Of a stretch of DNA of 37,533 nucleotides, positions 7,791 to 36,190 are shown piece by piece. How positions within the stretch are numbered: position 1 is the first letter of the stretch; the number at the start of each line of letters is the position of its first letter. The notes beneath the pieces were generated by a model. The model had not been told where the DNA came from, did not search any database, and was given only the letters and a program-made list of their open reading frames with translations. Made by a program: the position numbers and the translations under genes. The DNA comes from Thermoflexus hugenholtzii JAD2 (GTDB lineage Bacteria > Chloroflexota > Chloroflexia > Chloroflexales > Roseiflexaceae): assembly GCA_945881915.1 (NCBI GenBank), contig CAMCVW010000034.1, forward strand, positions 1-37,533, written 5' to 3'.

Positions 7791-9260
7791 CTATACCCAC
7801 GTGCCGGACGGCAGAGCGTCGATGTCGTTGGCCGCAATGGCGTTCTGACGCAGTTCGGCCAGTTCGCCGCAACCCGTCCGTGCGGGGAAGACTTTGCCGG
7901 GGTTGAATAAATCCAACGGGTCAAATGATTTGCGTAAACCCGCCATCGCAGCCAAGTCGGCGGTGCTGAAGAGGATGTCCATGTAATCGCGCTTTTCGAC
8001 CCCAATGCCGTGCTCGCCGCTGACCACGCCGCCCAACCGGACGGATTCCTTGAGGATTTCTGTAGCGGCACCCAAGGCTCGCTCGAGTTGCTTCTTGTCG
8101 CGCCGATCAAACAAAATCAGCGGGTGCAGATTGCCGTCGCCGGCGTGGAAGACATTGGCGATGGGCAGGGAGAAGTCCTTGGCGACGTCACCCACATGCG
8201 CCAGAATCGCCGGCAACTTCGTACGCGGCACGACGGTATCGACCAAGTAATAACTGGGTGATAAGCGGCCCATTGCGCCAAAAGCGTTTTTGCGGGCGGC
8301 CCAGACCTGCGCTTGTTCGGCGGCCGTTGTCGCAGGCCGTACCTCGATGGCGCCGTGCTCACGGCAGATGCCCACCACCTGCGCCAAGAGTTCGTCGAGG
8401 CCATCGCTGACGCCGTCGACTTCGATGAGCAACGCCGAGCCGGCACTGTCGGGCAAGCCCAGTTTATACATGCCGTTGACGGCTTTGATGGCCAGCTTGT
8501 CCATCATCTCGAGGGCAGCCGGCAAAATCCCACGGGCGATGATGGTCGAAACAGTCTGCGAGGCAGATGGGATGTCGGGGAACAAGGCCAATACAACGCG
8601 CAGTGCCTCGGGTAGGCGCGTCATGCGCACCCAGGCCTCGGTGACGATGCCGAACATGCCCTCGGAGCCGGTCATTACCCCGGCCAGGTCGTACCCGACC
8701 GTGTCGATCCGGCCATTACCTGTCCAAATCAAGTCTCCATTCGGAAGCACCGTGCGCAACGCCAACACATGATTGGTCGTCATGCCGTATTTGAGGCAGT
8801 GTGGCCCGCCACTGTTGTTGGCAATGTTGCCGCCGAGTGTACAGGCTTTTTGTGACGACGGATCGGGCATGAATGCATAGCCGTGCGGGGCTAACTGTTG
8901 CGATAACTCCCAGTTGATGACGCCGGGTTGCACGCGCACGCGCCGGTTGGCGGCGTCGACCTCGAGGACCTGCTCCATGCGCGTCATGGCGATGACAATG
9001 CCGCCGTGGATGGGCGTCGCCCCGCCCGACAAACCAGTCCCTGCGCCGCGGGCGACGACGGGGATGCGGGCCTGGTGGGCGATTTTGACAATGGCGGCAG
9101 TCTGCTCGCTGGTCTGCGGCAACACGACGATATTTGGGGCGTGTAGGTCCATCACACAGCCATCGGCTTCGTAGGTCATCAAGGCAGCATCGCCCATCAC
9201 CACACCACGCGTACCGACAACTGCCTGGAGGGCACGGATGAGTTCGCCAGAATAGTGCAT
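7791..9260 (-). CDS. glcD: Glycolate oxidase catalytic subunit GlcD (FAD-linked)
   Basis: 489 residues, close to E. coli GlcD. The FAD site is shown by VVARGAGTGLSGGATP near residue 70 and DPSSQKACTLGGNIANNSGGPHCLKYG near residue 135. The C-terminal FAD-oxidase domain has NVFHAGDGNLHPLILFD, SGEHGIGVEKRDYM and FNPGKVFP, matching GlcD well. D-lactate dehydrogenases of the same family are an alternative, but the adjacent glcE favours glycolate oxidation. The start at 9260 has only a weak AAAGA upstream. TATAAT on the minus strand at 9297-9292 suggests a promoter directly before the gene. Confidence 0.92.
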   Translation of the reverse strand: MHYSGELIRALQAVVGTRGVVMGDAALMTYEADGCVMDLHAPNIVVLPQTSEQTAAIVKIAHQARIPVVARGAGTGLSGGATPIHGGIVIAMTRMEQVLEVDAANRRVRVQPGVINWELSQQLAPHGYAFMPDPSSQKACTLGGNIANNSGGPHCLKYGMTTNHVLALRTVLPNGDLIWTGNGRIDTVGYDLAGVMTGSEGMFGIVTEAWVRMTRLPEALRVVLALFPDIPSASQTVSTIIARGILPAALEMMDKLAIKAVNGMYKLGLPDSAGSALLIEVDGVSDGLDELLAQVVGICREHGAIEVRPATTAAEQAQVWAARKNAFGAMGRLSPSYYLVDTVVPRTKLPAILAHVGDVAKDFSLPIANVFHAGDGNLHPLILFDRRDKKQLERALGAATEILKESVRLGGVVSGEHGIGVEKRDYMDILFSTADLAAMAGLRKSFDPLDLFNPGKVFPARTGCGELAELRQNAIAANDIDALPSGTWV

Positions 9261-9291
9261 CAGGAGGTTCTTTCACTGTATCGGTAGCTGC

Positions 9292-9297
9292 ATTATA
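9292..9297 (-). promoter_or_regulatory. Candidate -10 box for glcDE
   Basis: The minus strand reads TATAAT here, 31 bp before the glcD ATG. No good -35 is seen at the usual distance. Confidence 0.45.
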
Positions 9298-9511
9298 CCC
9301 AAGCCTGAATGCCACACCGAAAAACTGTGTCGAGACACAACCAGCAAGAGCAAAATCACCTCATCCACAAACGGATGCGAAAACACGTGACGGATTATCT
9401 GATTCGTACATCCGCACCATGGTTGTTGGCGGTCGCAGTTGTGCGTGGCAAGCAGTTATATGTAGAAATGGTGCGCTTCTGTGGTGCATATTTGGTGTGG
9501 AAGAACAAAAA

Positions 9512-9542
9512 TTGCTAAATTATTAAAAATATATGCTATAAT
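9512..9542 (+). promoter_or_regulatory. Candidate extended -10 promoter for the gene at 9596
   Basis: TGCTATAAT at 9534-9542 is a consensus extended -10. A possible TTGCTA -35 at 9512-9517 is 19 bp away, which an extended -10 can tolerate. GAGGAG lies 4 nt before the ATG at 9596. Confidence 0.6.
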
Positions 9543-9595
9543 ATCCCCCTACTGTAGATGAAAAAAAAACCTTTTTTAGTTTTACGAGGAGCAGT

Positions 9596-10375
9596 ATGCG
9601 TGCGTTTTCTTTTCGCCAGATAGGTTTTGCTCTTCTCTGTATTTTGATTTCTAGCACAATGCTATTATTATTTTCTCCGGTGTCGGGTCAATCGGGGACA
9701 ATCTCCGGCATTGCCATCAAAACAAAAAAAAATACGCCCACCAAAACCAAAACACGTACGCCCACCAAAACCACAACACGCGCGCCCACCAAAAGCCCAA
9801 CGAGAGTGCGTACATTGACAAAGAGTGCAACGGCAATACCTGCTACGTTGACACGTACCCCAACATCTACCCCAACATCTACCCCAACCCTGACCCCATC
9901 GGCAACACCGAACCCTGATGCTGCCCTAAACACCATCGTGAATGGTGGTTTTGAAACAACCGGCGGTTGGCAGGCAACCCACCCGAGTTTCGCTTTTTCT
10001 ACAGGAAGTGGTGGAGTGTTACCCAATTCAGGGTCGTATATGATGATGACCACCGGTAGGGAATTCGAAATTTATCAGAGTGTCATAGTGCCGCAAAGTG
10101 CGCCTATTCTTCGTTTTTCGTATCGCGTCACAGGGTCAAGTGCGAGCTGTGTTGGCAGTCAAAGTTATATGTATATCTCCATAGATAGATGGTACCCAGA
10201 AAGCTATTGGTATGGCTGCGATACTGCGGGGTGGGAAACGTTCACGTTCGACTTGTCGAGTGAAGCAGGTAATAGCCGAGAACTTGTCATCTATATTGGT
10301 ACCAATGGTACCACCGTCTTCCTCGACAATATCGGGTTTGTGAGTGCGCCGACGCGACTGGTGGATTACTACTAG
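9596..10375 (+). CDS. Secreted protein: Thr/Pro/Lys linker plus jelly-roll-like C-terminal domain (paralogue A)
   Basis: 259 residues in three parts: a signal peptide (about residues 1-38), a low-complexity Thr/Pro/Lys/Arg linker (about 43-105, TKTKTRTPTKTTTRAPTKSPT followed by TPTSTPTSTPT), and a C-terminal domain of about 155 residues. The C-terminal domain runs from NPDAALNTIVNGGFE to FVSAPTRLVDYY. Its NGGFE...GW start and final FLDNIGF strand look like carbohydrate-binding jelly-roll modules, but I cannot assign a ligand. The protein at 10614 shares the whole plan and much of the C-terminal domain, so the two are a tandem duplication. Likely located outside the cell; the linker is a plausible glycosylation target. 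Confidence 0.75.
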   Translation: MRAFSFRQIGFALLCILISSTMLLLFSPVSGQSGTISGIAIKTKKNTPTKTKTRTPTKTTTRAPTKSPTRVRTLTKSATAIPATLTRTPTSTPTSTPTLTPSATPNPDAALNTIVNGGFETTGGWQATHPSFAFSTGSGGVLPNSGSYMMMTTGREFEIYQSVIVPQSAPILRFSYRVTGSSASCVGSQSYMYISIDRWYPESYWYGCDTAGWETFTFDLSSEAGNSRELVIYIGTNGTTVFLDNIGFVSAPTRLVDYY

Positions 10376-10428
10376 GGGTGTATAGGCTTTAAGACGCGCC
10401 GCTACGAAAAGAGGCTACCCGGCATTGA

Positions 10429-10515
10429 ACCCGTATGGGCGATGGAAGCATCGAGCAGTTCGCATGCAACATTCGATTCGTCAGCGAACCGACCCGTGAG
10501 GTTGATTACTATTAG
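10429..10515 (+). pseudogene. Tail of a third copy of the secreted-protein domain
   Basis: In one frame this stretch encodes about 28 residues ending FVSEPTREVDYY and a stop, nearly the same as the ends of the genes at 9596 (FVSAPTRLVDYY) and 10614 (FVSAPTREVDYY). The upstream boundary is an in-frame TGA and no start is present. It is most likely the 3' remnant of a third tandem copy lost by recombination. Confidence 0.75.
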
Positions 10516-10613
10516 GCGATCCAGGCCCAGGATAGTCGAACATCGTTGGTAACGTGTACGAGGGATTGAAACGAGGCTGTATGGGTACACCTTCCTCATA
10601 GCTCACCGGAACA

Positions 10614-11591
10614 GTGCTGCTGTTGATATTGGTAACTTGCTTCCAGTGGCCGGCAGTACCGCATGCGTCAGGCGGATCGGCGGTGTATGCGCGTATTGCG
10701 ACGCTCACCAAAACGAAAACACGCACAAAAACGCGAACTGCAACCCGCACAATACCCAAACCACGCACCAGCACCCGGACAGCAACACGCACAATACCCA
10801 AACCACGCACTACCACGCGGACAGCGACCAAAAGCCCTACCAAAACACGGAGTGCATCACCAATAAAGACTCCCTCAGCAACCGTACGAGCACCATCAGC
10901 GACGGTTACCCAGACTGTCGTGCCAGCGCCATCCGGAACGGCGACTGAGACGGCAACATCAACCGCTACGCCCACGCCCACCTCTACAGCGACGCAAACA
11001 GCATCTGTGACACCGAGTCGCACGAATACTCCGACATATACTGCAAGTCGCACTCCGACACCACCCCCGACCCATACAGCGAGTCCAACAGCATCACGGA
11101 CAGTGACGCCGTCGCCCACGCCAAATCCCGATAAGGCACGAAACACCATTGTGGATGGTGGTTTCGAAACAGGGAGCGGTTGGATGATGGATGCGGTAGC
11201 GTACAACACTGCCTCCGGAAGCGTGACTCCCAAGTCTGGGTTGTACATGTCGGCTACTGTAGGTATGTACGCTATTCTCACTCAGCCGGTTTATATTCCC
11301 ACGACTGCGCCGTATCTGCGTTTTTCGTATCGGATTGTCGGTTCGCGGAGCTGTGCCACCGGCAGTAGCACGGACTATATCTGGGTGTATACCAACGTTG
11401 GTGTATTAGTGTGGTATCTCGATGCATGCAGTACTGCAGGCTGGGTGACTGGTACGTTGGACATGACGAGTGAAGCAGGGGCGACGGCGGAGATTTACTT
11501 CGAAGTAAACACAGATGCGCACGGTGGAACGGTGTATTTCGACGATATTGGGTTCGTCAGCGCACCGACACGCGAGGTTGATTACTATTGA
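10614..11591 (+). CDS. Secreted protein: Thr/Arg-rich linker plus jelly-roll-like C-terminal domain (paralogue B)
   Basis: 325 residues from a GTG start. A short hydrophobic segment (LLLILVTC) stands for the signal peptide, but no basic residues precede it and no convincing ribosome binding site is present. In-frame stops lie just upstream at 10533 and 10599, so the original 5' end may be damaged. The linker (about residues 33-170) is longer than in paralogue A. It contains a 14-residue repeat (TRTIPKPRTSTRTA type) encoded by a 23-bp direct repeat at 10746-10768 and 10788-10810. The C-terminal domain (NPDKARNTIVDGGFE to FVSAPTREVDYY) is clearly homologous to that of the gene at 9596. Function unknown, probably cell-surface. 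Confidence 0.65.
   Translation: MLLLILVTCFQWPAVPHASGGSAVYARIATLTKTKTRTKTRTATRTIPKPRTSTRTATRTIPKPRTTTRTATKSPTKTRSASPIKTPSATVRAPSATVTQTVVPAPSGTATETATSTATPTPTSTATQTASVTPSRTNTPTYTASRTPTPPPTHTASPTASRTVTPSPTPNPDKARNTIVDGGFETGSGWMMDAVAYNTASGSVTPKSGLYMSATVGMYAILTQPVYIPTTAPYLRFSYRIVGSRSCATGSSTDYIWVYTNVGVLVWYLDACSTAGWVTGTLDMTSEAGATAEIYFEVNTDAHGGTVYFDDIGFVSAPTREVDYY
10746..10810 (+). repeat. 23-bp direct repeat within the linker-coding region
   Basis: CGCACAATACCCAAACCACG plus CAC occurs at 10746-10768 and again at 10788-10810, a period of 42 bp (14 codons). It keeps the reading frame and lengthens the Thr/Arg-rich linker. Confidence 0.9.
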
Positions 11592-20190: not shown

Positions 20191-23100
20191 TTATGCGGGA
20201 ATGGGTTGGAGACATTCGAGGACCGCGATGATGTGTTCGAGCCAGGCAGCCCCGGCTTGGTACCGTGCAATGCGGACGAATTGCGGACCGATTTTGATGT
20301 GGCGATCGCGGATAAAGCGCCGGCTCAGTCGATTGCGCAGTTCGTCGTGGCCATCGGGAAGTTTGATGATGAATTCTTGTTCGGTTGCAACCACTGACGG
20401 CACACCGGCTTGGAGTGCCAGCGTTTTGATGTGCAGCCAGGTGAGCAGGTGTTCGACCGGTTCGGGCGGTTTGCCGAAGCGGTCGCGTAACATGGCGCGT
20501 AATCCTTTGACGGCGACGATGGTCTGCGCCTCGGCCAAATGTTGGTAGGTCGACAAACGCACTTGATCGTCGGGTATGTAGTCGACGGGCAAGAAGGCGT
20601 TGAGAGGCAGGTCGACGGTGACCAGCGGGGTGACCAGCACTTTTTCGTCGACTTTGATGCGCTTGTGTGAGGTTGGTACCGCTTGGGCATCTTCGCTGGG
20701 TTGGGGTTGGGTATTGTCAAAGCGGAACTTCATGGCGCGCACGGCTTGTTCGAGCAGGCGCGAATAGAGGTCGAATCCAACGGCCGAGATGTGCCCGCTC
20801 TGTTCGGCGCCGAGGACGTTACCTGCCCCACGGATTTCGAGGTCGCGCATCGCGATGCGGAATCCTGCCCCCAATTCGGTTGCTTCTTGGATGGCCTGCA
20901 AACGCTGGTGCGCCTCGATGGTAAGCGGGACGCCAGGAGGCAAACAGAGGTAGCAGTAGGCACGCTGGGTGCTGCGGCCGACGCGCCCGCGCAATTGGTA
21001 CAGCTGGGCCAGGCCGTAGTACGGCGCATCGTCGATGATGATGGTGTTGGCGGACGAGACGTCGAGCCCGTTTTCGATAATGGTCGTACACACCAGCACG
21101 TTGGTTTTGCCGGTATAGAAGTCGAGCATGACGCGCTCGAGCTGATGCTCGGGCAACTGCCCGTGACCAATACCGATTCGTGCGCCGGGAACGAGACGAT
21201 GCAGTTGATCTGCGACGTGAAATATCGAATGCACACGGTTGTGGACGACATAGACCTGCCCGTCGCGCTCGAGTTCTCGTTCAATAGCCTCGCGGATTTG
21301 ACGATCGTTGCGTTGAATCAAGTAGGTTTTGACGGGCATGCGCTCTTCGGGCGGTGTCTCGATGACACTCAGGTCACGGATGCCGGCGAGCGACATGTGG
21401 AGCGTCCGCGGAATGGGCGTGGCGGTCAGGGTGAGCACGTCGACGCCGGTTTTGAGTTGCTTGAGGCGTTCTTTGTGTTTGACGCCAAAGCGTTGCTCTT
21501 CGTCGACGATGAGGAGCCCGAGGTCTTTGAATTGGATGTCGTTGGACAAAATCCGGTGCGTGCCGACCAGGATGTCGACCCTGCCGTTGCTCGTGGCTTC
21601 GAGGACGCCGCTCGACTCTTTGGCACTGCGAAAACGGGATATCAGGTCTACTTTGATGGGGAAGGCGGCCATGCGCCGACTGAATGTCTCGAAGTGTTGC
21701 TGCGCCAACACCGTGGTAGGGACGAGGACGGCGACTTGCTTGTGATCTTGGACCGCTTTGAATGCAGCGCGCAGGGCTACTTCGGTTTTGCCGAAGCCGA
21801 CGTCGCCGCAGACGAGGCGGTCCATGGGCTGATCTGATTCCATGTCGTGCTTGACATCGTTGATGGCTTTGAGCTGATCGACCGTCTCGTTATAGGGGAA
21901 GGCTGCTTCGAACTCGCGTTGCCAGTTATTGTCGGGTGCATAGTGAAAGCCCTTGGCGGTGCTCCGTTTTGCATAGATGGCCAGGAGTTCCTCGGTCAAA
22001 TCCTCGACGGATTTGCGGGCTTTGCGTTTGGCGCGTTCCCAGTCCTGGGAGCCGAGGCGGGTCAGCGTCGGCTCGGCATCGCCCGAACCGATATAGCGTG
22101 ACACACGATCGATTTGGTCGACGGGCACATAGAGTTTGTCGCCAGCGGCATAGCGCAGGTTGAGGTATTCGCGTTCGATGTGATCGATGGTGCGGCGAAT
22201 CATGCCGTCGTAGATGGCAATTCCGTGTTCGATGTGCACCACAAAATCGCCCACCTGCAGACCACGCAAAAACGCCGCTCGGTCTTGGGAGGAGCGGTCG
22301 TCGCGTTCGCTGCGCTTGGGTTTGCTGGCGCTGCGGCGTTGCGTCCAGCCGAAGATTTCTGCGTCGGAATAGACGCTGACGCCGAACGACGGTGACGTCC
22401 AGCCACTGTCGATGACGCCGTGCACGAGGTGCAAGTGTGTATCGGGGCCACTCGCTTCGAGGACCATCTCGTGCAGGCGGGCAGCCTGCGGGGTGACCAG
22501 GTAGACGTGTTGCCCGAGGGCCAGTCGTTTGACGACCTCGCTGATGAGCTCTTTGAGGCGCCCGCCGTATAAATCGACTGCGCGGAAGAAGTCATCCGGA
22601 ATTGATTCGATGACCGGCTCGAGCATCAACTCGGTGAATGGCAGATCACTGGTGGCGATGTGCATGACCTGAACGCGCTGCAAAATTGTCCGCCAGGGAT
22701 GGATGACGATGGGGTACCAGCCAGGGAGTTCGCCGCTTTCGACATGCTGGAGTCGACGTGTTTCGTGTTGCATGGCGTATTCGCTGGCAGCCTGCGCGAT
22801 GAGGACCGGTTCGCTGATGAGTAGCGGTGCGTGTGGCGGGAGGTAATCGAGCAAAGAGGCCATCTGCAGATCTGGCGCAAAGAGCGGTGCGATGAGGGCG
22901 CGTGCCTCGAACGGTTCGTCCAAAGCGAAGCGTTCGATGAGTTGCACCCATTCATGGCGTGCCTCGTCACGCAGGCCGCTCAGGTCCTGTGTACGCAACC
23001 ATTCGACCACCGCGTCGCGGCGGGCGTGGTGATATTCGTATGCCGGTCCGATGGTCAACGTTGATAATGTCTCGGTGCTGCGTTGCGTCAGCGGGTCGAA

Positions 23101-23727
23101 GCTGCGGATGGAGTCGATGTCGTCGCCGAAGAACTCGATGCGCACCGGTTGGGCTGCGCCGACCGGAAAAATGTCGATAATCCCGCCGCGCCGATTGACT
23201 TCCCCCGGTTCCGAGACTGCCGCGGTCAAGCGATAGCCAATCTGGGCACAGTGATGAATGAAGTTGAGCGGATCGAGCCTGCTATTGAGGACGACACTGA
23301 GGGTACTATTGGCGAGATCAACGGGGTTGATGGTGGGCTGCAACAGTGCACGGATAGAAGCCACCACAATTGCTGGTTCGTTGCGTTGTAATGCCAGCAA
23401 CGCTTTGATGCGCGCGGCAGTGCTCTCGGTGCTGGCCGACATGGGTTCGTACGGGATGGCGTCGTTGGCGACGAAGTGATAGGTCGGCCGCGAGGGAATC
23501 CACAAGCTCAGGTCTTCGCAGAGGCGAATTGCTTCGTCTGGATGGGCAACGACGACGACCATCGGGCGCGAGTCATGCAGAGCAAGTGCAGCAATCAGCG
23601 GCGCAAGTGCGGCTTTGCGTACCCCGGCGAGGTGCGTCTGACCATCCCCGCGCAGGGCTTCGCACAGCGAGACTATGGACGCACTATCGGCGATGCGGCT
23701 GGTGAGTTGCGCGAGTGTCTGCGACAT
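20191..23727 (-). CDS. mfd: Transcription-repair coupling factor Mfd, full length
   Basis: 1178 residues from ATG 23727, with AAAGGA 6 nt upstream. The frame extends to 23850, but that part overlaps the preceding gene and is unlike Mfd. Mfd removes RNA polymerase stalled at DNA lesions and recruits UvrA. Modules in order: UvrB-like region (GEVNRRGG at 175-182, RIEFFGDDIDSI); D3; the CarD-like RNA-polymerase-interaction domain (VVHIEHG, His501) ending LGSQDWERAKRKARK; a RecG-like motor with Walker A GFGKT (GKT 646-648), DEEQ at 742-745 and GRVGRSTQRAY; and the C-terminal TRCF domain. All expected modules are intact. It lies 28 bp after a shortened paralogue. Confidence 0.97.
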   Translation of the reverse strand: MSQTLAQLTSRIADSASIVSLCEALRGDGQTHLAGVRKAALAPLIAALALHDSRPMVVVVAHPDEAIRLCEDLSLWIPSRPTYHFVANDAIPYEPMSASTESTAARIKALLALQRNEPAIVVASIRALLQPTINPVDLANSTLSVVLNSRLDPLNFIHHCAQIGYRLTAAVSEPGEVNRRGGIIDIFPVGAAQPVRIEFFGDDIDSIRSFDPLTQRSTETLSTLTIGPAYEYHHARRDAVVEWLRTQDLSGLRDEARHEWVQLIERFALDEPFEARALIAPLFAPDLQMASLLDYLPPHAPLLISEPVLIAQAASEYAMQHETRRLQHVESGELPGWYPIVIHPWRTILQRVQVMHIATSDLPFTELMLEPVIESIPDDFFRAVDLYGGRLKELISEVVKRLALGQHVYLVTPQAARLHEMVLEASGPDTHLHLVHGVIDSGWTSPSFGVSVYSDAEIFGWTQRRSASKPKRSERDDRSSQDRAAFLRGLQVGDFVVHIEHGIAIYDGMIRRTIDHIEREYLNLRYAAGDKLYVPVDQIDRVSRYIGSGDAEPTLTRLGSQDWERAKRKARKSVEDLTEELLAIYAKRSTAKGFHYAPDNNWQREFEAAFPYNETVDQLKAINDVKHDMESDQPMDRLVCGDVGFGKTEVALRAAFKAVQDHKQVAVLVPTTVLAQQHFETFSRRMAAFPIKVDLISRFRSAKESSGVLEATSNGRVDILVGTHRILSNDIQFKDLGLLIVDEEQRFGVKHKERLKQLKTGVDVLTLTATPIPRTLHMSLAGIRDLSVIETPPEERMPVKTYLIQRNDRQIREAIERELERDGQVYVVHNRVHSIFHVADQLHRLVPGARIGIGHGQLPEHQLERVMLDFYTGKTNVLVCTTIIENGLDVSSANTIIIDDAPYYGLAQLYQLRGRVGRSTQRAYCYLCLPPGVPLTIEAHQRLQAIQEATELGAGFRIAMRDLEIRGAGNVLGAEQSGHISAVGFDLYSRLLEQAVRAMKFRFDNTQPQPSEDAQAVPTSHKRIKVDEKVLVTPLVTVDLPLNAFLPVDYIPDDQVRLSTYQHLAEAQTIVAVKGLRAMLRDRFGKPPEPVEHLLTWLHIKTLALQAGVPSVVATEQEFIIKLPDGHDELRNRLSRRFIRDRHIKIGPQFVRIARYQAGAAWLEHIIAVLECLQPIPA

Positions 23728-23755
23728 GCCAAATCCTTTGTACAGGGGCTGCGAC

Positions 23756-25180
23756 CTACCAGTCGCGCGTACCCAAAACCGTGAGTGAAGGTGCCGCATT
23801 CGTCGGATCACCGTAGCACGTGACACGATCAAACTGCTGCTCGGGCACATAGAGTCGGTCAGCGCCGGCGTAGCGCAGCTTCAGATATGGCTTGGTGAGT
23901 CCCGCGACGTGTTGCATCACGATGCCTTCGTACAGGGCAATGCCGTGGTCAATGTGGCAGACGAACTGCCCTTCTGCGAAGGGCAAAGACGCTGCCAGGT
24001 TCGGAGTATCGCTGAGGGTGCTGGTGCGCCGCGCACTGGGGAGCGTCATGTGTGTCAGCGCATGCTGCGTCGCATAGTGCTTGGCCGCGATGGGGACGGT
24101 TTCACTGAGCAAGAGCACATGTGTGTGTGCAGTGATGGCACGCGCAGGCACGACCACGTCGGGGTACCAGGCGGGCAGGAGCCCGTGATGGATGAGGCGC
24201 GTGCGCTGCTTTTCGAGCCGGCTGGCGTACTCGGTCATCTGATTCATCAGGGGGTCGGGCTCGACGCACACGAGCAATCCATCTGCAGGCAGTGCGTCGA
24301 TGATGCTGCACGGTGGGGTGTCATTGAGCAGCGGCAGGAGCAACGACATGCCGGGGAATGGGAGATTGTGACTAAACGGATCGAGGAACGCATCCCATTC
24401 GAGCTGCGCTGCCTCACGCATGCCATAGTCGCCTGACGCACGGAGGTGTTCGAGGAGCGCCGGTTGGTTGCTCCAATCGGCTTCGATGCGTAAGCTGATC
24501 GTATAGTCGGGCAAAAACGACATAATCAGTTGACGGCGCATGTCGTAGTGCGAGATGGATTCGATTTCATTCCCGAAGAACTCGACCCGAATGGGGTACG
24601 GTTCACCATCGGGGAACACATCGACCACACCGCCGTGGCGGCGTACTTCGCCGGGCTGGGACAGCGTTTGGACGAGTTGGTACCCCAGTGCCACACACTG
24701 GGCCGTCATCGTGACGGGGTCGAGCGTATCGTCGCAGCGGTAGGTGCGTTGTGATGCCTGATAGACGGCTGGCGCAACGGTCCCTTGGACGATGGCGCGC
24801 CAGGGGACGACGACGATGGTGTCTCGATGGCCAGCGAGCAGATCAGCAAGAACGACCAGACGTTGGCGTACAACGGCAGATTCGTAGCTGCCCGTCTCGT
24901 ACGGATAGACCGCATGGGTGGGGTAGGAGTGCACAACACGGTTCGGGAACGCCCTGCGCAGGGTCGTGCTGAGTCGTTGTGCCTCTGCTTCGCTGTTGAC
25001 GACGATGAGGGTGGCTTTGAGGGCATGGGGCAGCAGGGTGAGGAGAAAAGGGGTTTGACCGCCGGCTGCGACCCCGGTCACCAGCACCGATTGCCCCGCA
25101 GACAATGCGCTGCCCATCGCCGCATGGGTCGCGACACTGGGTTGAGAAAGTTGATTCACGCTGGTTGTCGGTTCCATCAT
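23756..25180 (-). CDS. Motor-less Mfd paralogue (UvrB-like module plus RNA-polymerase-interaction domain only)
   Basis: 474 residues that align with the first half of Mfd. The UvrB-like module carries GEVRRHGG at 177-184 and YPIRVEFFGNEIESI; the matching Gly in full-length Mfd is residue 175. The CarD-like domain has VCHIDHGIALYEG (His412), YLKLRYAGADRLYVPEQQFDRV, and ends at LGTRDW-stop. In Mfd the relay helix and motor follow exactly this Trp. The distance between the two motifs is about 90 residues shorter than in Mfd, matching loss of D3. There is no Walker A or DEAD-type motif. The start is ambiguous between ATG 25180 and ATG 25177, with GAGG just upstream. The two paralogues are strongly diverged, yet 474 codons remain open, which suggests function. 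Inferred role: binding RNA polymerase and/or UvrA without translocation. Confidence 0.88.
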   Translation of the reverse strand: MMEPTTSVNQLSQPSVATHAAMGSALSAGQSVLVTGVAAGGQTPFLLTLLPHALKATLIVVNSEAEAQRLSTTLRRAFPNRVVHSYPTHAVYPYETGSYESAVVRQRLVVLADLLAGHRDTIVVVPWRAIVQGTVAPAVYQASQRTYRCDDTLDPVTMTAQCVALGYQLVQTLSQPGEVRRHGGVVDVFPDGEPYPIRVEFFGNEIESISHYDMRRQLIMSFLPDYTISLRIEADWSNQPALLEHLRASGDYGMREAAQLEWDAFLDPFSHNLPFPGMSLLLPLLNDTPPCSIIDALPADGLLVCVEPDPLMNQMTEYASRLEKQRTRLIHHGLLPAWYPDVVVPARAITAHTHVLLLSETVPIAAKHYATQHALTHMTLPSARRTSTLSDTPNLAASLPFAEGQFVCHIDHGIALYEGIVMQHVAGLTKPYLKLRYAGADRLYVPEQQFDRVTCYGDPTNAAPSLTVLGTRDW

Positions 25181-28524: not shown

Positions 28525-28568
28525 CTGTGCTCCCCCTTGCATGCAGTGTGTGTGTTGGTGATAGGTTC

Positions 28569-28574
28569 ATTATA
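28569..28574 (-). promoter_or_regulatory. Candidate -10 box for the CoxL-to-dehydrogenase gene group
   Basis: The minus strand reads TATAAT, about 45 bp before the CoxL-like ATG. No clear -35; the terminator of the upstream operon begins immediately behind. Confidence 0.4.
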
Positions 28575-28585
28575 GAGCACGATAG

Positions 28586-28617
28586 TGAGAAAACGCAGCA
28601 CCAGTACGGTGCTGCGT
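28586..28617 (-). terminator. Terminator of the restriction operon
   Basis: ACGCAGCACC pairs with GGTGCTGCGT around a 5-nt loop. On the minus strand the stem is followed by TTTCTC. It lies 29 bp after the methyltransferase stop. Confidence 0.8.
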
Positions 28618-28645
28618 GCGGGCGAATATTCATTGAGCAGACGAC

Positions 28646-31600
28646 TCATTCGTCGTCGGCGAAATTGAGCGGGAGGCTCTCCTCGGCGGCGCGCCGCTTG
28701 GGCGTGCCGCTGCTGGTGGTCTGGCCGAACTGCGCTTTCACCGGCTCGCTGCTGGTCTCTGTTCCGTTGGCAAACGCCCCCGGCCAGCCACCGTGGGCAT
28801 CGATGACGACGTCGATCTCGGCCATCAGGCGGATGGTTTGCTGCAGGGCGACAACGATCTTCTGATAATGGGCGATGTCCTCGGCGCTCAGCACTCGCCC
28901 CTTGCGGTCCTTGAGCCACTTCTCGCAGACCTGGTAGCCGCCGATGTGGAAGTTCCAGACCTCCTCGGGTACGCCGGCGAACCCCGTCGTCCCGCGCCCA
29001 TACGCCGCCTTTGTACCCGTGCCGTCGATCCAGACCGTTCCGTCGGCATAGCCTACCTTGCCCACCGTCCAGTTCGTGCCGACGGTGTGGGTAATGGGTG
29101 TTTCGAGCAGCGGCGATTCCATCAGGTGCAGTGCGACCAGTTGCTCGCCGAGGTGCGCCAACGCGCGGAACAGATCGATACTCTCGGTCAATGGGAGGCG
29201 CGGGAAATCTATCTTCAGAAACTCTGCGTAGCGACTCCGGTAGCCGGGACTATGAAATACCGCGTAGATGTAGTGGAAGATGTCTTCGGGCGTCAGGCCG
29301 GTTGGCAGGCCTTCACTTCCAGTTTTTGGAAAACCTAGAGCACTAGTTAAGTCTGACAAAAAAGAGTCCGTAAAATTAGCAATCCTCGTGCTAGGTTTCT
29401 GTTTTTGCCAGAGGTCAGAATCTGAAGGAGCAATGTAAAGAGGGAATATATAAGGAGTTCCCAGGGTGCTATACATACTACGATCTGTCATAGGAGCTGC
29501 AGTCGCCATGACCTCACATTCGTCTTGTACGCCGGCGATCTGTCGCATGGTTGCGAGGGCCACGCTTCCCGCAATAATGCACTCGCTTATCTCTTTTCGT
29601 GGATAGGCGATGAAGCCCTTCGACCTGCCAGTGAAGTAGCTCCAGCGAAAGTCGAATGGACGATACTGGATCGAGATTACGGTTCCATCGTTTCGCAACA
29701 CGTCATCCTTTGCCCACTTTACTGCCCAGTCTCTGCCATCGTCCCCAAGAACGTAGTGCTCGCGTAGCCATGTTGTGTCTCGCTCTCTCAAATCCGACAG
29801 CACTTTTTGAAGATCGCTTCTTGAGTAGTGAATCGTAAGCGAATCTTTCTTCGTCTGGATGCCAGAATTGTAAAAAGGCATCATTGCGGGAACGCTCCAC
29901 CCGCGCTCAAACTCGAGTCGAAATGGGTTAGATGAGACTTTGAAGAAGAAGGCGGGAGCGCTAGGCGTGATCTCAGATGCAGTTTTGAGGAAAGTATTCG
30001 CGCTGTCCAACCGTACATACTTAGATTGACGATCTCCCAAAAAATCTGAAAGAAGCAAAGGACGCTCTCCGCCGACTGCGGTCTTAGCGAAGATTGAAAT
30101 CGAAACCCCCTGTTTGATGTCGAAAACATTCTCGTCATCCTGACCATCTGGGGTCTTCTCTCTTTTTTGGATGCTCCCATGGAGATCTACCACTCGCATT
30201 AAATCAAAGAACTCAACGATCGACTGCCTCATTCTCCGATGCGTGATACCGTCTAAGAAAACGTTATTTGTGATGAAACCAAGAACGCCTACGCGGCTTT
30301 GGTCGAGGACGAACTGTGAAAAGCGCACGAACTTAATGAAGTCATCATCGAGATTGATTTTCCTTTCGTCCAAGCCGCGCTTGTAGTCATCCAGCAAGCC
30401 AGCGATGAACGGGTTCTTGTTGAGCTGTCCGAAATTTGAATACGGCGGGTTGCCGATGACGACGGTGAATCGCTTATACCATTTGATTTTGTTCACGGCG
30501 GCGGCTTCGTGGGCGAGGGCGTTGAAGCCGATTTGCGGAAGCTGTTTGACCTTCGGTTCAAGGGCGTTGGTGAGGTAGATACGGGCGCGTTCCTCGGTGC
30601 CGAAGCGGTAGCCGGTCTCGGCGAGCTTGAGGCCGATTTTCATGTGGGCGATGGCATATGGGGCCATCATCAGCTCGAAAGCGTGAAGGCGTGGGAGAAG
30701 GTTTTGCGGCACATAGTCGTTCCACGCAGCGCGCTGCTGAGCGTCGGTGAGGCGCTGCTGCTTCCACTTGGCCACAAGGGTGCGGTGGATGACGTCGATG
30801 ACTTCAACAAGAAAGGTGCCTGTGCCCGTCGCTGGGTCGAGAATTTGAACGAAAGGTTCACTCTCGGCGAGTAACCGCGGGCGCGAGGGATCATCTGACA
30901 GGTCTGGCAACTTAAGGTCAGGGTGCTTTTGCAGCATCTCGCCCCAAGTCGTCGTATCAGCGAGACCGTCGGTAAGGCCGAACTCCGTTTGGAGCAACTC
31001 ATGCACAGAGCGTACGATATAGCTCACCACCGGGCGCGGGGTATAAAATACGCCTCGTTGCATCCTCTTCTTGGCATCGTACTCTTTCAAAAACAGTTCG
31101 TAGAAGTGAATCACCGGATCTTCGTGAGCATCACGGTTGTTGAAGTCGAGCAGGACCTCGTCCATTTGGGCGGCGTTGAGCAGTTCGATGATTTCGTTGA
31201 TGCCCAACTCGTCGAAGTCGATGCGGCGCAGCTGATCCTTGCCGCCCATTGTCAGGAACGTCTGCATCAGCTCACGCAAGAACGGATTGGTCTGCAGATT
31301 GGCCGCGAAGTCCTCGGTCGATTTCTGCTCCGGGTTGGCAATCCGTGTCGACAACAATCCGTAGGCGATGGTCTGGGCATACATATCTGCGAAGTCGGCC
31401 GGCGTCAGGTCGTGGATCAGTGCTGTCTTGAACGACGCCATCAATTTGGTGAACTGGCCATTCTCGGCTTCGTAGGCCATGACCGTTGTCAGGCGATCGC
31501 GGATGTCGCGCGCCAGCCGGGCCAGGGCGATGGAGAGCTGTTTTGTGGTCTTGATGGTCTCTTTGGGGCGCAGGGTGAACGCAGCACTCCAGTGCTGCGG

Positions 31601-32137
31601 CCAGCTACTGACCGCAGCGGGGCTTTCGGGGAAGGTGAAGTAGCGCCTGAGGCGCTGTTCGACGTCGGCGGTACGCAGTTTGGTGTCGTCACCATCCCAG
31701 CCGAGCACTCGCAGCGTGGGGAGTTGGCTGGAGCCGTCCGGCGCTTCGGCGAAGTGGGCGAAGGTCATGTGCCGGTCGGTGGCGGCACCGTGGCTCGAGA
31801 TAAACAGCAGGTCGTGCATGTTCCAGCGCTGGTGGTCGCTTTTGGTGGCGCGCTGGCGCACAATCAGGGTATTGAGGACACGACGCAGCACGACCACGGG
31901 CAGATTGCCGCCGGCGAACTCGATATAAAAGACGCTCCACGGTTGCCCCGTCACGAAGGGGCGGATGCGCACAATCTGAGTAATATTGACCGCCGCGTCG
32001 CCGGTAATGCCCAGCTCGGCAGGGCGATATTCGAAGGTCATATCCTCGATGTCGTCGGGGCTGACCGGCCACTGCAACGCGTCTCCCAAGTATGTCAGCA
32101 GCGATTCGAACGAACGGACGGTTTGTATCGATGTCAT
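28646..32137 (-). CDS. Large N6-adenine DNA methyltransferase with type ISP-like specificity region
   Basis: 1163 residues from ATG 32137 (GAGGA 5 nt upstream). The N-terminal 300 or so residues are of unclear family. The methyltransferase core starts with RGVFYTPRPVVSYIV, then motif I DPATGTGTF (about 437-445, S-adenosylmethionine binding) and catalytic motif IV NPPY (563-566). The C-terminal half resembles the target-recognition regions of type ISP/IIG enzymes, with IQYRPFDFRWSYFTGRSKGF and a DVWNFHIGGY-like segment (EVWNFHIGGYQVCEKWLKDRKG). Unlike fused ISP enzymes it has no helicase of its own; the helicase is the preceding gene, 22 bp away. About residues 569-936 are encoded by visibly A+T-richer DNA. 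It likely marks host DNA at a specific site. Confidence 0.88.
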   Translation of the reverse strand: MTSIQTVRSFESLLTYLGDALQWPVSPDDIEDMTFEYRPAELGITGDAAVNITQIVRIRPFVTGQPWSVFYIEFAGGNLPVVVLRRVLNTLIVRQRATKSDHQRWNMHDLLFISSHGAATDRHMTFAHFAEAPDGSSQLPTLRVLGWDGDDTKLRTADVEQRLRRYFTFPESPAAVSSWPQHWSAAFTLRPKETIKTTKQLSIALARLARDIRDRLTTVMAYEAENGQFTKLMASFKTALIHDLTPADFADMYAQTIAYGLLSTRIANPEQKSTEDFAANLQTNPFLRELMQTFLTMGGKDQLRRIDFDELGINEIIELLNAAQMDEVLLDFNNRDAHEDPVIHFYELFLKEYDAKKRMQRGVFYTPRPVVSYIVRSVHELLQTEFGLTDGLADTTTWGEMLQKHPDLKLPDLSDDPSRPRLLAESEPFVQILDPATGTGTFLVEVIDVIHRTLVAKWKQQRLTDAQQRAAWNDYVPQNLLPRLHAFELMMAPYAIAHMKIGLKLAETGYRFGTEERARIYLTNALEPKVKQLPQIGFNALAHEAAAVNKIKWYKRFTVVIGNPPYSNFGQLNKNPFIAGLLDDYKRGLDERKINLDDDFIKFVRFSQFVLDQSRVGVLGFITNNVFLDGITHRRMRQSIVEFFDLMRVVDLHGSIQKREKTPDGQDDENVFDIKQGVSISIFAKTAVGGERPLLLSDFLGDRQSKYVRLDSANTFLKTASEITPSAPAFFFKVSSNPFRLEFERGWSVPAMMPFYNSGIQTKKDSLTIHYSRSDLQKVLSDLRERDTTWLREHYVLGDDGRDWAVKWAKDDVLRNDGTVISIQYRPFDFRWSYFTGRSKGFIAYPRKEISECIIAGSVALATMRQIAGVQDECEVMATAAPMTDRSMYSTLGTPYIFPLYIAPSDSDLWQKQKPSTRIANFTDSFLSDLTSALGFPKTGSEGLPTGLTPEDIFHYIYAVFHSPGYRSRYAEFLKIDFPRLPLTESIDLFRALAHLGEQLVALHLMESPLLETPITHTVGTNWTVGKVGYADGTVWIDGTGTKAAYGRGTTGFAGVPEEVWNFHIGGYQVCEKWLKDRKGRVLSAEDIAHYQKIVVALQQTIRLMAEIDVVIDAHGGWPGAFANGTETSSEPVKAQFGQTTSSGTPKRRAAEESLPLNFADDE

Positions 32138-32159
32138 CGTGATCCTCGTGATGTATGTG

Positions 32160-35100
32160 TTACTGCAATGCCATCCAGCAGCGTAGTTTGGCGTTGACCC
32201 CTTGCGGTGCGTCGATTTTGCGCAGGTAGTCGTTCTTGATGTAGGTCAGGACTTTTTTGCGGATGTCGATGACCTGTGATTCACTCAGCGCAAATACTCG
32301 CGGCGTCTTGCGGTCGGCGCGGATGTGCGTGGCGATCTCGGTCGCGGACTCGAGGATCTTCTGGGTCTCGACATCGTACAGATACCAGCGCACAGTGCCG
32401 GCGGCATGGGTGTAATCACCGGTGACGGTGTCGTAGGCCGGGAGTGCATAGCAGAAAAAGATGCCCTTGGTTGTGGTCGTACTGGTTTTGCCGCTGTAGG
32501 TGAGCGGCAGCGCGTTGAGCTCAGCCTCGAGGGTCGGGTAATCGGTGAGGAGTTTTTGGTATTCGAGGCGTAAGGATTCTTCTTCGCTGGTGATGCCATC
32601 GAACCCTGCATTCAGCTCGGCGATAGCGCGGTGTTTGTCTTCCTCGGTGATAAGCTTGCCACCCTCGATGCCGAGGACTTCCGAGATCATGATGGTGCGG
32701 TTGGTGACGCGCTCATACAGACTGAGCAGCTTGTTGAGTTCCTTGGGCGGCAGGAAGTTCCAGTACGTCACGCTACCGCGGAGCGCGGCGACTTCCGGGT
32801 GGTCGGTTTTGAGTGCGTGTTCGACAGCCGGGTTCAAGCGGCGGTCGACGCGGCCGATGCGCTGCATCAGGCGAACGGGGTTCCAGTGGATATCGTAGTT
32901 GATCAAGAACGTCGCATCTTGGAGGTTCAAACCCTCAGAAAGCACATCGGTCGACACCAACACACGGATCGGCGTACGCCCCTTGGCGCGGAGCTGGTTG
33001 CTGCTAGAACGGTTGTAATACGGCGCGAAGCGGGTGATGACGTCGTTGCGGTCGCTGCTCGATGAGCTGTCGATTTGTTCGACGCCGTCGATACCGGCGG
33101 CGATGAGTTGGCGCGCGATGTATTGAGCGGTGTCGGCGAATTCGCTGAAGATGATGACTTTCTGTTTCGCGAGTTTGGTGCTTTTGAGCAGCTCGATGAG
33201 TTTGTTGACCTTGTCGTCGTGGCGGACATCGTAATTGGCGGTTTCTTGCAAGAACGACAACAGCATGTCCATATCGGCGCGGCTGTCCTCGAGCATGGCG
33301 CCGATTTCGTACGCTGCGTCGGAGAACGTCGGCACTTTACCGCGGATTTCGTCCATGATTTTGTCTTCGTCGAGTTCGTCATCGGTGGTAGCGAGCAGCT
33401 CCGTGTGCCGGGCAATGACCGCTGTGATCACCGCGGCGTTCATGGTTTCCCAGCGTTTGTGACGGTCTTGTTGCGGCTTGCTGGTGGCGTGTTTGGTCAC
33501 GAAGGCGCGGAGTTTGAGGAACAGGCGGATAGAGGACATTTCGAAGGCGATAATCGAGCTTTCGAAGCGTTTGAGGAAGCTGGTCCGGATCAAGCCGACC
33601 ACTGCGATGTTACGGTTGGCTTCCCACTCGTCGACTGCGCTTTTGTTGCGGGCGTAGGGTGTCGGGTTGTACATCGCCAGCGTAAAGAGTGGTGGTTTCT
33701 GGGCGGTCTGCGTGGTGGTCTGGAATGCGTTTTCGAACAGCGTAAAGAGCTTGCCGTACGAATCACGGAGCGCATAGTTCTGGACGACCGGGGGTTTGCG
33801 GTTCGGGAACAGCAGGGTATTCTTGTTTTCGGCCATCTGGCTCGCACGGGCATAGGCCCGGCTGCGCTGGACGACGAGTGCTCGGAAGAGTCGATTGCCA
33901 CGGATGAAGGTCGATGCTTCGTCACCGATGTCGGTGGCGTCTTTTTCGCCACGCGCGGCGAGGACATCGCGCAACTCTCGCTCCAACATATTAAACGTCG
34001 TTTTTAAACTATTGACGCCCAGTGTTTTTGCGAAAGCCGTGTCGCTCGGCGTAAAGAGTTCGATGAGGTGACGGAAGTCGCTGATGCTGTTGTTGATCGG
34101 CGTTGCGGTCAACAAATACACCTGTTTTGGTTTGCCGCCGCTCACACCGTCGTTCGTGCGGGTGCTCCCATCGATAAGCTGTTGCAGGCGGTAGTAGCGG
34201 CTGACATCATTATTTTGGTAGTTTGGCACCTGCCCGGTATTGCGGAAGTGATGAGCTTCGTCGACGATGACCACATCTGCCACCGCAGCGGCTTGCTCGA
34301 ACTGGGCGCGTAGGCTGTCGCGGGTCAGGTCGGTGTGGTTGTAGACGGCGAGGTTTGAAAACACCCCGTCGAGCTTCACATGCGGGAGCCAGCGATCGAG
34401 GTCTTTGTCCCAGACGCTTTCGCGAGCTGATTTCGGGGCCAGCAGCACGACGCGCTTTTTTTCGTGGATGACCAAGCGTTCGATGAGCATCAAGCCGACG
34501 TACGTTTTGCCCAGACCGACACCGTCACAGAGGAACGCACCGCTGTGCTGTTGGGCGATTTTGATCATCGACCAATAGGCTTCTTTCTGATACCGATCGA
34601 GCTCTTTGAACATCTTTGATTGGGTCTGTTCCCACTCGTCGGCAGTCAGATTATCTCCGCGGCAATATTCGTGCAGCGCTTTGGCGTACACTTCGAACGG
34701 GGTGTAAAGCCTTATGTGTTTTGTGATGATTTTTAACACATCCTTCGAGACGTCTTTGCCCTTTTCCCAATGATATTCGAACCAGTTTTGCAATTCTTCG
34801 ACATCGTTACCGGTTTGGACGTGGATATTGAGCTCGACGTTATCGGTCAATCCCGGCGCGGTGAAGTTGCTCGAACCGACGAGTGCCTGCGGTCCGAAGA
34901 AGCCGGTGCGTTCGTGGGTGATGTAGCATTTGGCATGAAATTTGCCTTCGTCGAACACCCGCACTTCGATTTTGCCGCGCTCGAGGGCATCGCGAATCGC
35001 CTCGACCCCACTCAGAAGCGGGCGGCTGTCTTTCATTTCTTCGACGCTTAGTTCGAGTTCGCTGTTAAGACGACGTTTGAGAGCTTCGAGTAAGGCATTA

Positions 35101-35321
35101 CGGGTGCGATAGGTAACTTCGTTTCCCATCAAGATGCGGATGTTGTCGATTTTTTGCCATGCGCCATCGAGTTTCAGAAGCGCACCTATTTCGAAGTAGC
35201 CTGTTGCAATATCGAGTTCACCTGTAAATTCAGTCCATTTTCGTAAGTACTCATGGACCTGCCATCCCGAGATAGAGTTGTCGACGATGTAAGGGTTTTT
35301 GTCACGTTTGAATGTTGTCAT
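32160..35321 (-). CDS. PLD-nuclease-like / SNF2-type DEAH helicase of a restriction system
   Basis: 1053 residues from ATG 35321 (GAGGAA 5 nt upstream); the frame continues to 35630 but that part overlaps the preceding gene. The first 190 or so residues form a phospholipase-D-like domain with KFHAKCYI (H129, K131) and VGSSNFT, half of an HKD active site. The superfamily 2 motor follows with Walker A GVGLGKT (GKT 271-273), DEAH 354-357, LLTATPINN, and in the second half VLVSTDVLSEGLNLQ and QRIGRVDRR (from 820). PLD-plus-helicase proteins next to a methyltransferase are typical of restriction or DISARM-like defence; this would be the DNA-attacking part. Whether the single HKD-type half is active, perhaps as a dimer, is not known. 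Confidence 0.88.
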   Translation of the reverse strand: MTTFKRDKNPYIVDNSISGWQVHEYLRKWTEFTGELDIATGYFEIGALLKLDGAWQKIDNIRILMGNEVTYRTRNALLEALKRRLNSELELSVEEMKDSRPLLSGVEAIRDALERGKIEVRVFDEGKFHAKCYITHERTGFFGPQALVGSSNFTAPGLTDNVELNIHVQTGNDVEELQNWFEYHWEKGKDVSKDVLKIITKHIRLYTPFEVYAKALHEYCRGDNLTADEWEQTQSKMFKELDRYQKEAYWSMIKIAQQHSGAFLCDGVGLGKTYVGLMLIERLVIHEKKRVVLLAPKSARESVWDKDLDRWLPHVKLDGVFSNLAVYNHTDLTRDSLRAQFEQAAAVADVVIVDEAHHFRNTGQVPNYQNNDVSRYYRLQQLIDGSTRTNDGVSGGKPKQVYLLTATPINNSISDFRHLIELFTPSDTAFAKTLGVNSLKTTFNMLERELRDVLAARGEKDATDIGDEASTFIRGNRLFRALVVQRSRAYARASQMAENKNTLLFPNRKPPVVQNYALRDSYGKLFTLFENAFQTTTQTAQKPPLFTLAMYNPTPYARNKSAVDEWEANRNIAVVGLIRTSFLKRFESSIIAFEMSSIRLFLKLRAFVTKHATSKPQQDRHKRWETMNAAVITAVIARHTELLATTDDELDEDKIMDEIRGKVPTFSDAAYEIGAMLEDSRADMDMLLSFLQETANYDVRHDDKVNKLIELLKSTKLAKQKVIIFSEFADTAQYIARQLIAAGIDGVEQIDSSSSSDRNDVITRFAPYYNRSSSNQLRAKGRTPIRVLVSTDVLSEGLNLQDATFLINYDIHWNPVRLMQRIGRVDRRLNPAVEHALKTDHPEVAALRGSVTYWNFLPPKELNKLLSLYERVTNRTIMISEVLGIEGGKLITEEDKHRAIAELNAGFDGITSEEESLRLEYQKLLTDYPTLEAELNALPLTYSGKTSTTTTKGIFFCYALPAYDTVTGDYTHAAGTVRWYLYDVETQKILESATEIATHIRADRKTPRVFALSESQVIDIRKKVLTYIKNDYLRKIDAPQGVNAKLRCWMALQ

Positions 35322-35358
35322 GTCTGTTCCTCGCTGATTGAAGAAGCCGTCCGTTTTG

Positions 35359-36030
35359 TTATGCATTAAAACTGCGGATTGCCACGACATAGCCTGCCAA
35401 AACTGCTCTGATGCGTTCTTTGACCGTTTGACCTTTGTACTGTAGCACCCATTTCCCTTCACGCAGGTAGCGCATCTGGAATGGTGCTGGTAATGAGTCG
35501 AGGACATCGCCCACAATGATGCGATGCACACTACTCGGTTGTGTTGACTGATGTGTAGACGCTTTGTAGCCGGCCGAATTGGGGATGGTAATCTCGACGC
35601 CGTAGACATCTTTGATGGCGAGCAGAACACCTTTTATATGTTTGGTGCGGCGACCTTCATACCGTTGCCCCGCAAATTCAAGCCAGTAACGGTTGTTGAC
35701 GTGCCCATACCGGATCGTGTCGTCCATGCTCGACCCAAAGAAGTCGAAGTCATCGGTGTCGTCATCATCATCGGTATCGTCGTCATCATGCCCAACGAGG
35801 ACAGGAACTGGAGGAGGGATCTGCGTGATGTCGGTGTCGTAGACCACCGGTGTCTTGGTCGGTGTCAGTGGCAATCCATGGACGGCCCGCGAGATACTGC
35901 GTGACGTGAGTTCCGTAGTATCATCGCAGTCTTCACTATAACTATGCTCGTAGGAAGTGCCGATTTTTTTGCAGTTCCCGATGTAATAGTCCATTACGGA
36001 GAACGCGAATCCACATCGTCGGCAGTACAT
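35359..36030 (-). CDS. Acidic protein with N-terminal Cys motif, first gene of the restriction operon
   Basis: 223 residues; GAGAGG lies 5 nt before the ATG. Cys3 and Cys6 (YCRRC) with Cys20 and Cys35 could bind a metal. Near residue 80 is a highly acidic stretch (DDDDTDDDDDTDDFDFF). The C-terminal half shows two related segments: WLEFAGQRYEGRRTKHIKG near 125 and WVLQYKGQTVKERIRAVLAG near 197, perhaps repeated small domains. I recognise no family. It ends 37 bp before the helicase start in the same direction and is probably co-transcribed. Possible roles include DNA mimicry by the acidic part, regulation, or sensing; none is demonstrated. Confidence 0.7.
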   Translation of the reverse strand: MYCRRCGFAFSVMDYYIGNCKKIGTSYEHSYSEDCDDTTELTSRSISRAVHGLPLTPTKTPVVYDTDITQIPPPVPVLVGHDDDDTDDDDDTDDFDFFGSSMDDTIRYGHVNNRYWLEFAGQRYEGRRTKHIKGVLLAIKDVYGVEITIPNSAGYKASTHQSTQPSSVHRIIVGDVLDSLPAPFQMRYLREGKWVLQYKGQTVKERIRAVLAGYVVAIRSFNA

Positions 36031-36190
36031 GGGTGCCTCTCTTTCACTGCATTGTGCCTGTGTTAGAAAATCAGTTAGGTGTATGAACCGTCATGTGGGA
36101 TACGTGTTACGTAAGAAATGATGCCCCATTGTATCGCGAAACGGACAAAAGAACGACGCAACCCCGACACACCAAACTCTTGCACCATAA

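What the first reader, a model, noticed from the sequence alone, without database searches (positions are those of the whole stretch)
28646..36030. Three-gene split restriction system: Cys/acidic protein, PLD-helicase, ISP-like methyltransferase
A PLD-SNF2 helicase and a large NPPY methyltransferase are separate genes 22 bp apart, not fused as in type ISP enzymes. None of the other DISARM genes (drmA, drmB) is present. The first gene encodes an unrecognised protein with a possible metal site, a strongly acidic stretch and two related C-terminal segments. It may be a new accessory factor of a minimal defence system.
Basis: partly seen in the sequence, partly recalled or inferred. Interest (0 to 1): 0.68.

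Follow-up and report, generated by a model that had tools for sequence, protein, structure and literature searches.

The report
Two-gene PLD-helicase/methylase restriction system
A bacterium's chromosome carries an inserted block with a two-part restriction system, a DNA-cutting motor protein and a separate DNA-marking protein that appear to dock through a shared domain; the odd small protein in front of them is found in no other genome searched, so it is probably not a core part.

Summary
The three genes are real. They lie on one 7.65-kb block (28531-36181) that is absent from sister genomes, where only about 126 bp separate the flanking genes. Genes 2 and 3 form a conserved two-gene unit. 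The PLD-SNF2 helicase clade (tree support 98) is followed by a methyltransferase carrying one particular N-terminal domain (P0003 residues 1-187, here "P3N") in 39 of 40 loci with usable downstream DNA, over about a dozen phyla. None of 36 more distant PLD-helicases has P3N. Searching the other way, 7 of 7 viral-collection P3N loci have the helicase. P3N stays while the methylase/recognition body behind it was exchanged at least three times, and its divergence tracks the helicase's (r=0.82) better than the recognition domain does (r=0.30). I read P3N as the docking domain. It is followed by a helical region resembling the Type ISP coupler, then an N6-methylase and a Type ISP recognition domain. 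The nuclease is the helicase's intact PLD domain. Best reading: a two-subunit, plug-in relative of Type ISP enzymes. The 223-residue protein has no detectable homogue or counterpart in 31 related loci, so the "accessory factor" idea is not supported as a general feature. No function was tested.

The parts
28531..36181 (.). inserted block (about 7.65 kb) between the coxL-like gene and sucC; sister genomes have about 126 bp of unrelated spacer here
   Evidence: blastn of five sister genomes against the window: matches stop at about 28530 and resume at about 36182; no direct or inverted terminal repeat longer than 8 bp
35359..36030 (-). 223-aa orphan protein: Cys 3/6/20/35, D-rich stretch about 79-105, two weakly similar C-terminal segments; not conserved
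32160..35321 (-). PLD nuclease-SNF2 motor protein; PLD H131-x-K133, N154, E165 and helicase motifs invariant or nearly so in 34 proteins (numbering of P0002, which starts two codons before the ATG)
28646..32137 (-). methyltransferase subunit: P3N domain (aa 1-187), ISP-type helical coupler (about 196-345), N6-adenine MTase (DPATGTG 434, NPPY 563), Type ISP C-terminal specificity domain (752-1106)
31577..32137 (-). P3N: conserved N-terminal alpha/beta domain (aa 1-187), proposed docking domain for the helicase; no conserved nuclease motif
28593..28618 (-). hairpin (10 bp) plus short T-rich tail after the methyltransferase gene, likely transcription terminator inside the inserted block
   Evidence: z -3.56; the generic scan did not list it

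Best explanation
This is a two-subunit ATP-dependent restriction-modification system on a horizontally acquired block. The methyltransferase subunit recognises a short DNA site and methylates adenine there to mark self DNA. Through its N-terminal P3N domain and coupler it holds the PLD-SNF2 subunit. On an unmethylated site, the SNF2 motor starts ATP-driven movement along the DNA and the PLD domain, working as a dimer or when two complexes meet, cuts the DNA. P3N is the constant docking part; the methylase plus recognition body is a replaceable cassette. The 223-aa protein is not needed by relatives; at most it is a lineage-specific regulator. Shown here: gene pairing, domain content, intact catalytic motifs, constant P3N with exchanged bodies, co-divergence with the helicase, insertion of the block. 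Inferred: docking, methylation, translocation, cleavage, defence.
For: Domains. P3N methyltransferase follows the helicase in 39 of 40 loci of the clade and in 0 of 36 outside it. Helicase clade supported. Reverse search 7/7. In 400 Chloroflexota genomes the strong P3N hits are exactly the three genomes that have this helicase. Body exchanges: L033 against its sister L055, L081 against L063, L067/L071 against L065/L084, with Type_ISP_C (or the ISP body by BLAST) present in one sister and absent in the other. Co-divergence helicase-P3N 0.82, coupler 0.65, MTase 0.45, recognition domain 0.30; bootstrap interval of the P3N-minus-recognition difference 0.18-0.98, and 0.14-0.80 without the window. 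Coupler match to LlaBIII Z 9.0 and LlaGI Z 8.1. PLD H, K, N, E invariant and helicase motifs invariant or nearly so in 34 proteins. Empty site in sisters. A solved parallel for a PLD+SF2 translocating nuclease is SauUSI (PMC7913695).
Against: No activity was measured. The relatives were gathered through the helicase, mostly from metagenome assemblies. Z 8-9 for a helical region is only moderate, although the two best hits are the expected ones and stand above the rest. Distance correlation can come from shared history rather than contact; the contrast between domains argues for contact but does not prove it. A diverged P3N-like stretch occurs in one methylase without such a helicase nearby (G061, E 2e-7), so the domain has relatives outside the pair. 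One clade member (L058) lacks the methyltransferase.
Confidence: 0.72

Rival explanations
1. A true three-component system in which the 223-aa protein is an essential accessory factor (metal- or DNA-binding, or an acidic DNA mimic that restrains the nuclease).
For: It is first in the operon, 37 bp before the helicase, and inside the inserted block. It is read as coding. The window's helicase and P3N are both unusually diverged (mean distance 0.79 against 0.60, and 1.10 against 0.82) while its methylase and recognition domains are not. Other HKD-helicase systems carry a fast-evolving, mostly disordered small protein (PMC10853773).
Against: No homologue in any collection searched. No similar gene upstream in 31 related loci.
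Confidence: 0.13
2. The methyltransferase is an ordinary Type IIG/ISP-like modification enzyme that works alone, and the helicase is an independent nuclease that happens to sit next to it.
For: Both protein types occur separately in many genomes; proteins annotated as type ISP or helicase-related are common on plasmids.
Against: Near-absolute pairing of this helicase clade with the P3N type of methyltransferase, kept through body exchanges. P3N shows no conserved nuclease motif, so the methyltransferase alone has no evident cutting activity.
Confidence: 0.1
3. A cut-down DISARM or BREX-related (Type-2 BR) system that has lost its other genes.
For: Type-2 BR systems also use an HKD nuclease fused to a Swi2/Snf2 helicase with an N6-methylase (PMC12839542). 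The helicase scores against DrmD, BrxH and DpdE profiles.
Against: No DUF499 in the genome, no DUF1156 in the methyltransferase, no DrmA other than generic helicase hits. Relatives across about a dozen phyla keep the same two-gene order, so this looks like the normal form rather than a remnant; their neighbours were not scanned for DUF499.
Confidence: 0.04

Closest known systems
Type ISP restriction-modification enzymes (LlaGI, LlaBIII)
   Same: Helical coupler, N6-adenine methylase and C-terminal recognition domain in the same order; a motor and a nuclease expected to act with them (PMC4872093)
   Different: Two polypeptides instead of one; nuclease is PLD, not Mrr; motor is SNF2/RapA-like; an extra N-terminal P3N domain takes the place of the nuclease-motor
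SauUSI (Type IV)
   Same: N-terminal PLD nuclease fused to an SF2 motor; dimeric translocating nuclease (PMC7913695)
   Different: SauUSI is one chain that recognises modified DNA with its own SRA domain and has no methyltransferase partner
Type-2 BREX-related (BR) systems
   Same: HKD nuclease fused to a Swi2/Snf2 helicase next to an N6-methylase (PMC12839542)
   Different: Those have a DUF499 ATPase, a DUF1156 methylase and usually DUF3780; none was found here
CglI / NgoAVII
   Same: PLD nuclease and SF2 motor in an ATP-dependent restriction system (PMC7913695)
   Different: There the PLD nuclease is fused to a B3 recognition domain and the motor is the separate subunit
PADLOC candidate C3a139 (HKD+Snf2)
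   Same: Best PADLOC match of the helicase, E 3e-59 over residues 41-834
   Different: A broad candidate family described only by its domains; it says nothing of the P3N methyltransferase partner

Membership tests
Type ISP restriction-modification | nuclease, motor, coupler, methylase and recognition domain in one polypeptide | tested here: not met
   two ORFs 22 bp apart; separate genes in the relatives examined
Type ISP restriction-modification | Mrr-family nuclease | tested here: not met
   PLD-type matches are the only nuclease domains found; no Mrr match
Type ISP restriction-modification | ISP-type recognition domain (Type_ISP_C) | tested here: met
   E 1.3e-73 over residues 752-1106
Type ISP restriction-modification | all-helical coupler before the methylase | tested here: met
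   residues 196-345 align to LlaBIII 714-857, Z 9.0, rmsd 3.7 over 129 residues; LlaGI Z 8.1; moderate for a helical fold
Type ISP restriction-modification | ATP-driven translocation and cleavage between two sites | not testable with these tools
   biochemistry needed; helicase and PLD motifs are intact
DISARM | DrmA | tested here: not met
   genome hits to DrmA are short generic helicase stretches, the best being this helicase itself; the profile also rings in 13 of 14 control genomes
DISARM | DrmB | tested here: inconclusive
   no DrmB in the PADLOC scans of the three proteins and ten other window ORFs; rest of the genome not searched
Type-2 BREX-related system | HKD nuclease fused to Swi2/Snf2 helicase | tested here: met
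   PLDc_2 at 56-187 then SNF2/Helicase_C in P0002
Type-2 BREX-related system | DUF499 ATPase | tested here: not met
   no PF04465 match in the genome
Type-2 BREX-related system | DUF1156 N-terminal domain of the methylase | tested here: not met
   no DUF1156 match to P0003 or to its first 345 residues
Pbe / CxC-ABC ATPase system | ABC ATPase and DndE partner next to the HKD-helicase | tested here: not met
   the inserted block holds only three genes, none an ABC ATPase
SauUSI-type Type IV enzyme | SRA recognition domain fused to the PLD-helicase, no methyltransferase partner | tested here: not met
   no SRA match in P0002; methyltransferase partner conserved

The most novel reading that the evidence does not exclude
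P3N is a docking plug that lets one PLD-SNF2 motor-nuclease work with unrelated methylase/recognition cassettes, and in the window's lineage a third, newly acquired subunit (the 223-aa acidic protein) has joined at the motor-P3N interface, which would explain why just the helicase and P3N have diverged faster there.
Probability: 0.1. Interest if true: 0.72.

Novelty: new variant of a known kind. Interest (0 to 1): 0.52.

Why it matters
If right, this is a restriction system built like a tool with exchangeable heads: a constant motor-nuclease and a constant docking domain, with the methylase/recognition part swapped at least three times in evolution. That gives a direct, testable handle on how specificity is exchanged in ATP-dependent restriction systems outside Type I. 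Since annotation tools name the two halves separately (a 'type ISP' or 'Type IIG' enzyme and a 'helicase-related protein'), the pair is probably overlooked in many genomes. It also removes a false lead: the small acidic protein is not a conserved part.

Tried and rejected
P0001 homologues: class, phylum, phages, plasmids, viral contigs and PDB, all empty beyond itself. Its segments searched alone in Pfam gave nothing significant, and its single-sequence structure model is too poor to search (pLDDT 38). I considered from memory an AP2-like or winged-helix reading of the C-terminal segments, but found no support. P3N as a nuclease: the strand order loosely resembles a restriction-enzyme fold, and the whole model aligns loosely with DrdV (Z 6.1 but rmsd 15), but no D or E-x-K position is conserved, so I reject an active nuclease there; its fold stays undecided. 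Profile search of P3N against PDB sequences gave only a sub-threshold Mfd match (E 0.17). Foldseek alone gave no match with E below 0.001. Target-site duplication or terminal repeats at the insert ends: none found, so no transposase-type mechanism is proposed. Several literature searches for the pair found no description; subscription papers are largely missing from the library.
Full report
WHAT IS THERE. Three minus-strand genes lie at 36030-35359 (223 aa, P0001), 35321-32160 (P0002) and 32137-28646 (P0003), with gaps of 37 and 22 bp and good ribosome sites. P0002 has a PLD domain followed by SNF2/Helicase_C. P0003 has an Eco57I/N6 methylase and the Type ISP C-terminal specificity domain. A 10-bp hairpin after P0003 probably ends the operon. 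P0001 scores as coding in its frame; the acidic run and the four cysteines are as described, while the two 'related segments' are only marginally similar (39 of 2000 shuffles reach the score).

THE BLOCK IS AN INSERT. In same-genus genomes, sucC and the coxL-like gene are direct neighbours with about 126 bp between the parts that match the window. Matches to the window stop at about 28530 and resume at about 36182 in five genomes. All three genes, P0001 included, lie inside the insert. No flanking repeats were found, so the route of entry is open.

THE CONSERVED UNIT IS TWO GENES. The two closest Chloroflexota relatives (52% and 49% identity) have helicase then methyltransferase and no small gene in front. 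A scan of 84,980 species genomes gave about 42 further members of the clade at 35-52% identity in about a dozen phyla. In 39 of 40 with DNA beyond the helicase, a methyltransferase with the same N-terminal domain (P3N, P0003 residues 1-187) follows, mostly 11-71 bp downstream; L058 is the exception. None of 36 helicases at 31% identity or less has P3N within its locus. In a maximum-likelihood tree the P3N-paired helicases form one clade (SH-aLRT 98; the one row marked P3N-minus inside it, L069, ends at its contig edge). Reverse tests agree: P3N searched in viral contigs found seven loci, all with this helicase just upstream. In 400 Chloroflexota genomes the three strong P3N hits are the three genomes that have the helicase; a fourth, weak and partial hit (E 2e-7) does not.

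P3N IS THE CONSTANT PART. In L033, L067/L071, L081, L076 and L079 the P3N domain is joined to methylase bodies without the ISP recognition domain (TaqI_C-like in L076, a DUF7008 type in L081), while sister helicases L055, L065/L084 and L063 have the ISP type. That needs at least three exchanges. Among 17 systems with ISP bodies, pairwise divergence of the helicase correlates with P3N at 0.82, coupler 0.65, methylase 0.45 and recognition domain 0.30; the P3N-minus-recognition difference has a bootstrap interval of 0.18-0.98, and 0.14-0.80 without the window. The helicase C-terminal region has the highest single value (0.84). I infer that P3N docks the helicase. This is inference from co-variation, not a demonstrated contact.

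ANATOMY OF THE SUBUNITS. The AlphaFold2 model of P0003 1-345 (pLDDT 78.7) has an alpha/beta domain up to about 187 and a helical region whose best structural matches are the couplers of LlaBIII (Z 9.0) and LlaGI (Z 8.1), above all unrelated rows. So P0003 reads P3N - coupler - methylase - recognition domain: a Type ISP enzyme with its nuclease-motor part replaced by P3N. P3N has no conserved nuclease motif; its near-invariant residues are mostly aromatic, leucine, proline and glycine. In P0002 the PLD residues H131, K133, N154 and E165 are invariant and all helicase motifs checked are invariant or nearly so in 34 proteins, so the nuclease and motor look active.

HOW IT PROBABLY WORKS. P0003 marks adenine at its site. 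At an unmarked site the docked P0002 is started, moves along DNA with ATP, and its PLD domain cuts, as in SauUSI where PLD dimers do the cutting (PMC7913695). Every step after domain identification is inferred.

THE SMALL PROTEIN. P0001 has no homologue in 158 class genomes, 400 phylum genomes, phages, plasmids, viral contigs or solved structures, and no gene like it stands before the helicase in 31 loci. It is not a general part of the system. Two facts keep a lineage-specific role open: it sits in the operon on the same insert, and the window's helicase and P3N are both unusually diverged while methylase and recognition domain are not (helicase end branch 0.68, against 0.4 or less in the 30-member group around it). 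A small, fast-evolving, mostly disordered protein is also known beside another HKD-helicase system (PMC10853773).

WHAT IT IS AND IS NOT. It works like a Type ISP enzyme but fails two defining features (one chain; Mrr nuclease). It fails DISARM (no DrmA) and Type-2 BR (no DUF499 or DUF1156), see membership table. I call it a new variant of ATP-dependent restriction-modification. The novelty claim is limited by the library: no description of the pair was found in the papers held.

Noticed in passing
window 23756-25180 (-), next to mfd 20191-23850 (-): A 474-aa ORF upstream of mfd is a partial Mfd-like paralogue (UvrB_inter and RID domains, about 35% identical to Mfd over the aligned part, no helicase).
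   Followed up: partly
L078:13210-16703: Four tandem copies of a roughly 265-aa gene (all with MDIRNLNDFAFKQKKY near the start) sit between the helicase and the P3N methyltransferase in a Poribacteria genome.
   Followed up: no
G000 contig C40:10-2712 (locus L166): A second Type ISP-like methyltransferase (about 25% identical to P0003) at a contig start in the same genome, without a P3N match on the part present.
   Followed up: partly
L153 (G061:C135) about 8591-11587 (-): A roughly 1000-aa N6-methylase with a weak P3N-like N-terminus (E 2e-7) and no PLD-helicase nearby, suggesting P3N belongs to a wider domain superfamily.
   Followed up: partly
L044, L042, L092, L090: More distant PLD-SNF2 helicases also sit beside other large Eco57I-type methylases without P3N, so PLD-helicase plus separate methylase may be a wider class with different docking parts.
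   Followed up: partly
L154-L160: Seven IMG/VR viral contigs (18-119 kb) carry the complete or cut pair, so it may travel on prophages or phage-like elements.
   Followed up: no
window 3424-5223 (+): 599-aa protein made largely of pentapeptide repeats.
   Followed up: no
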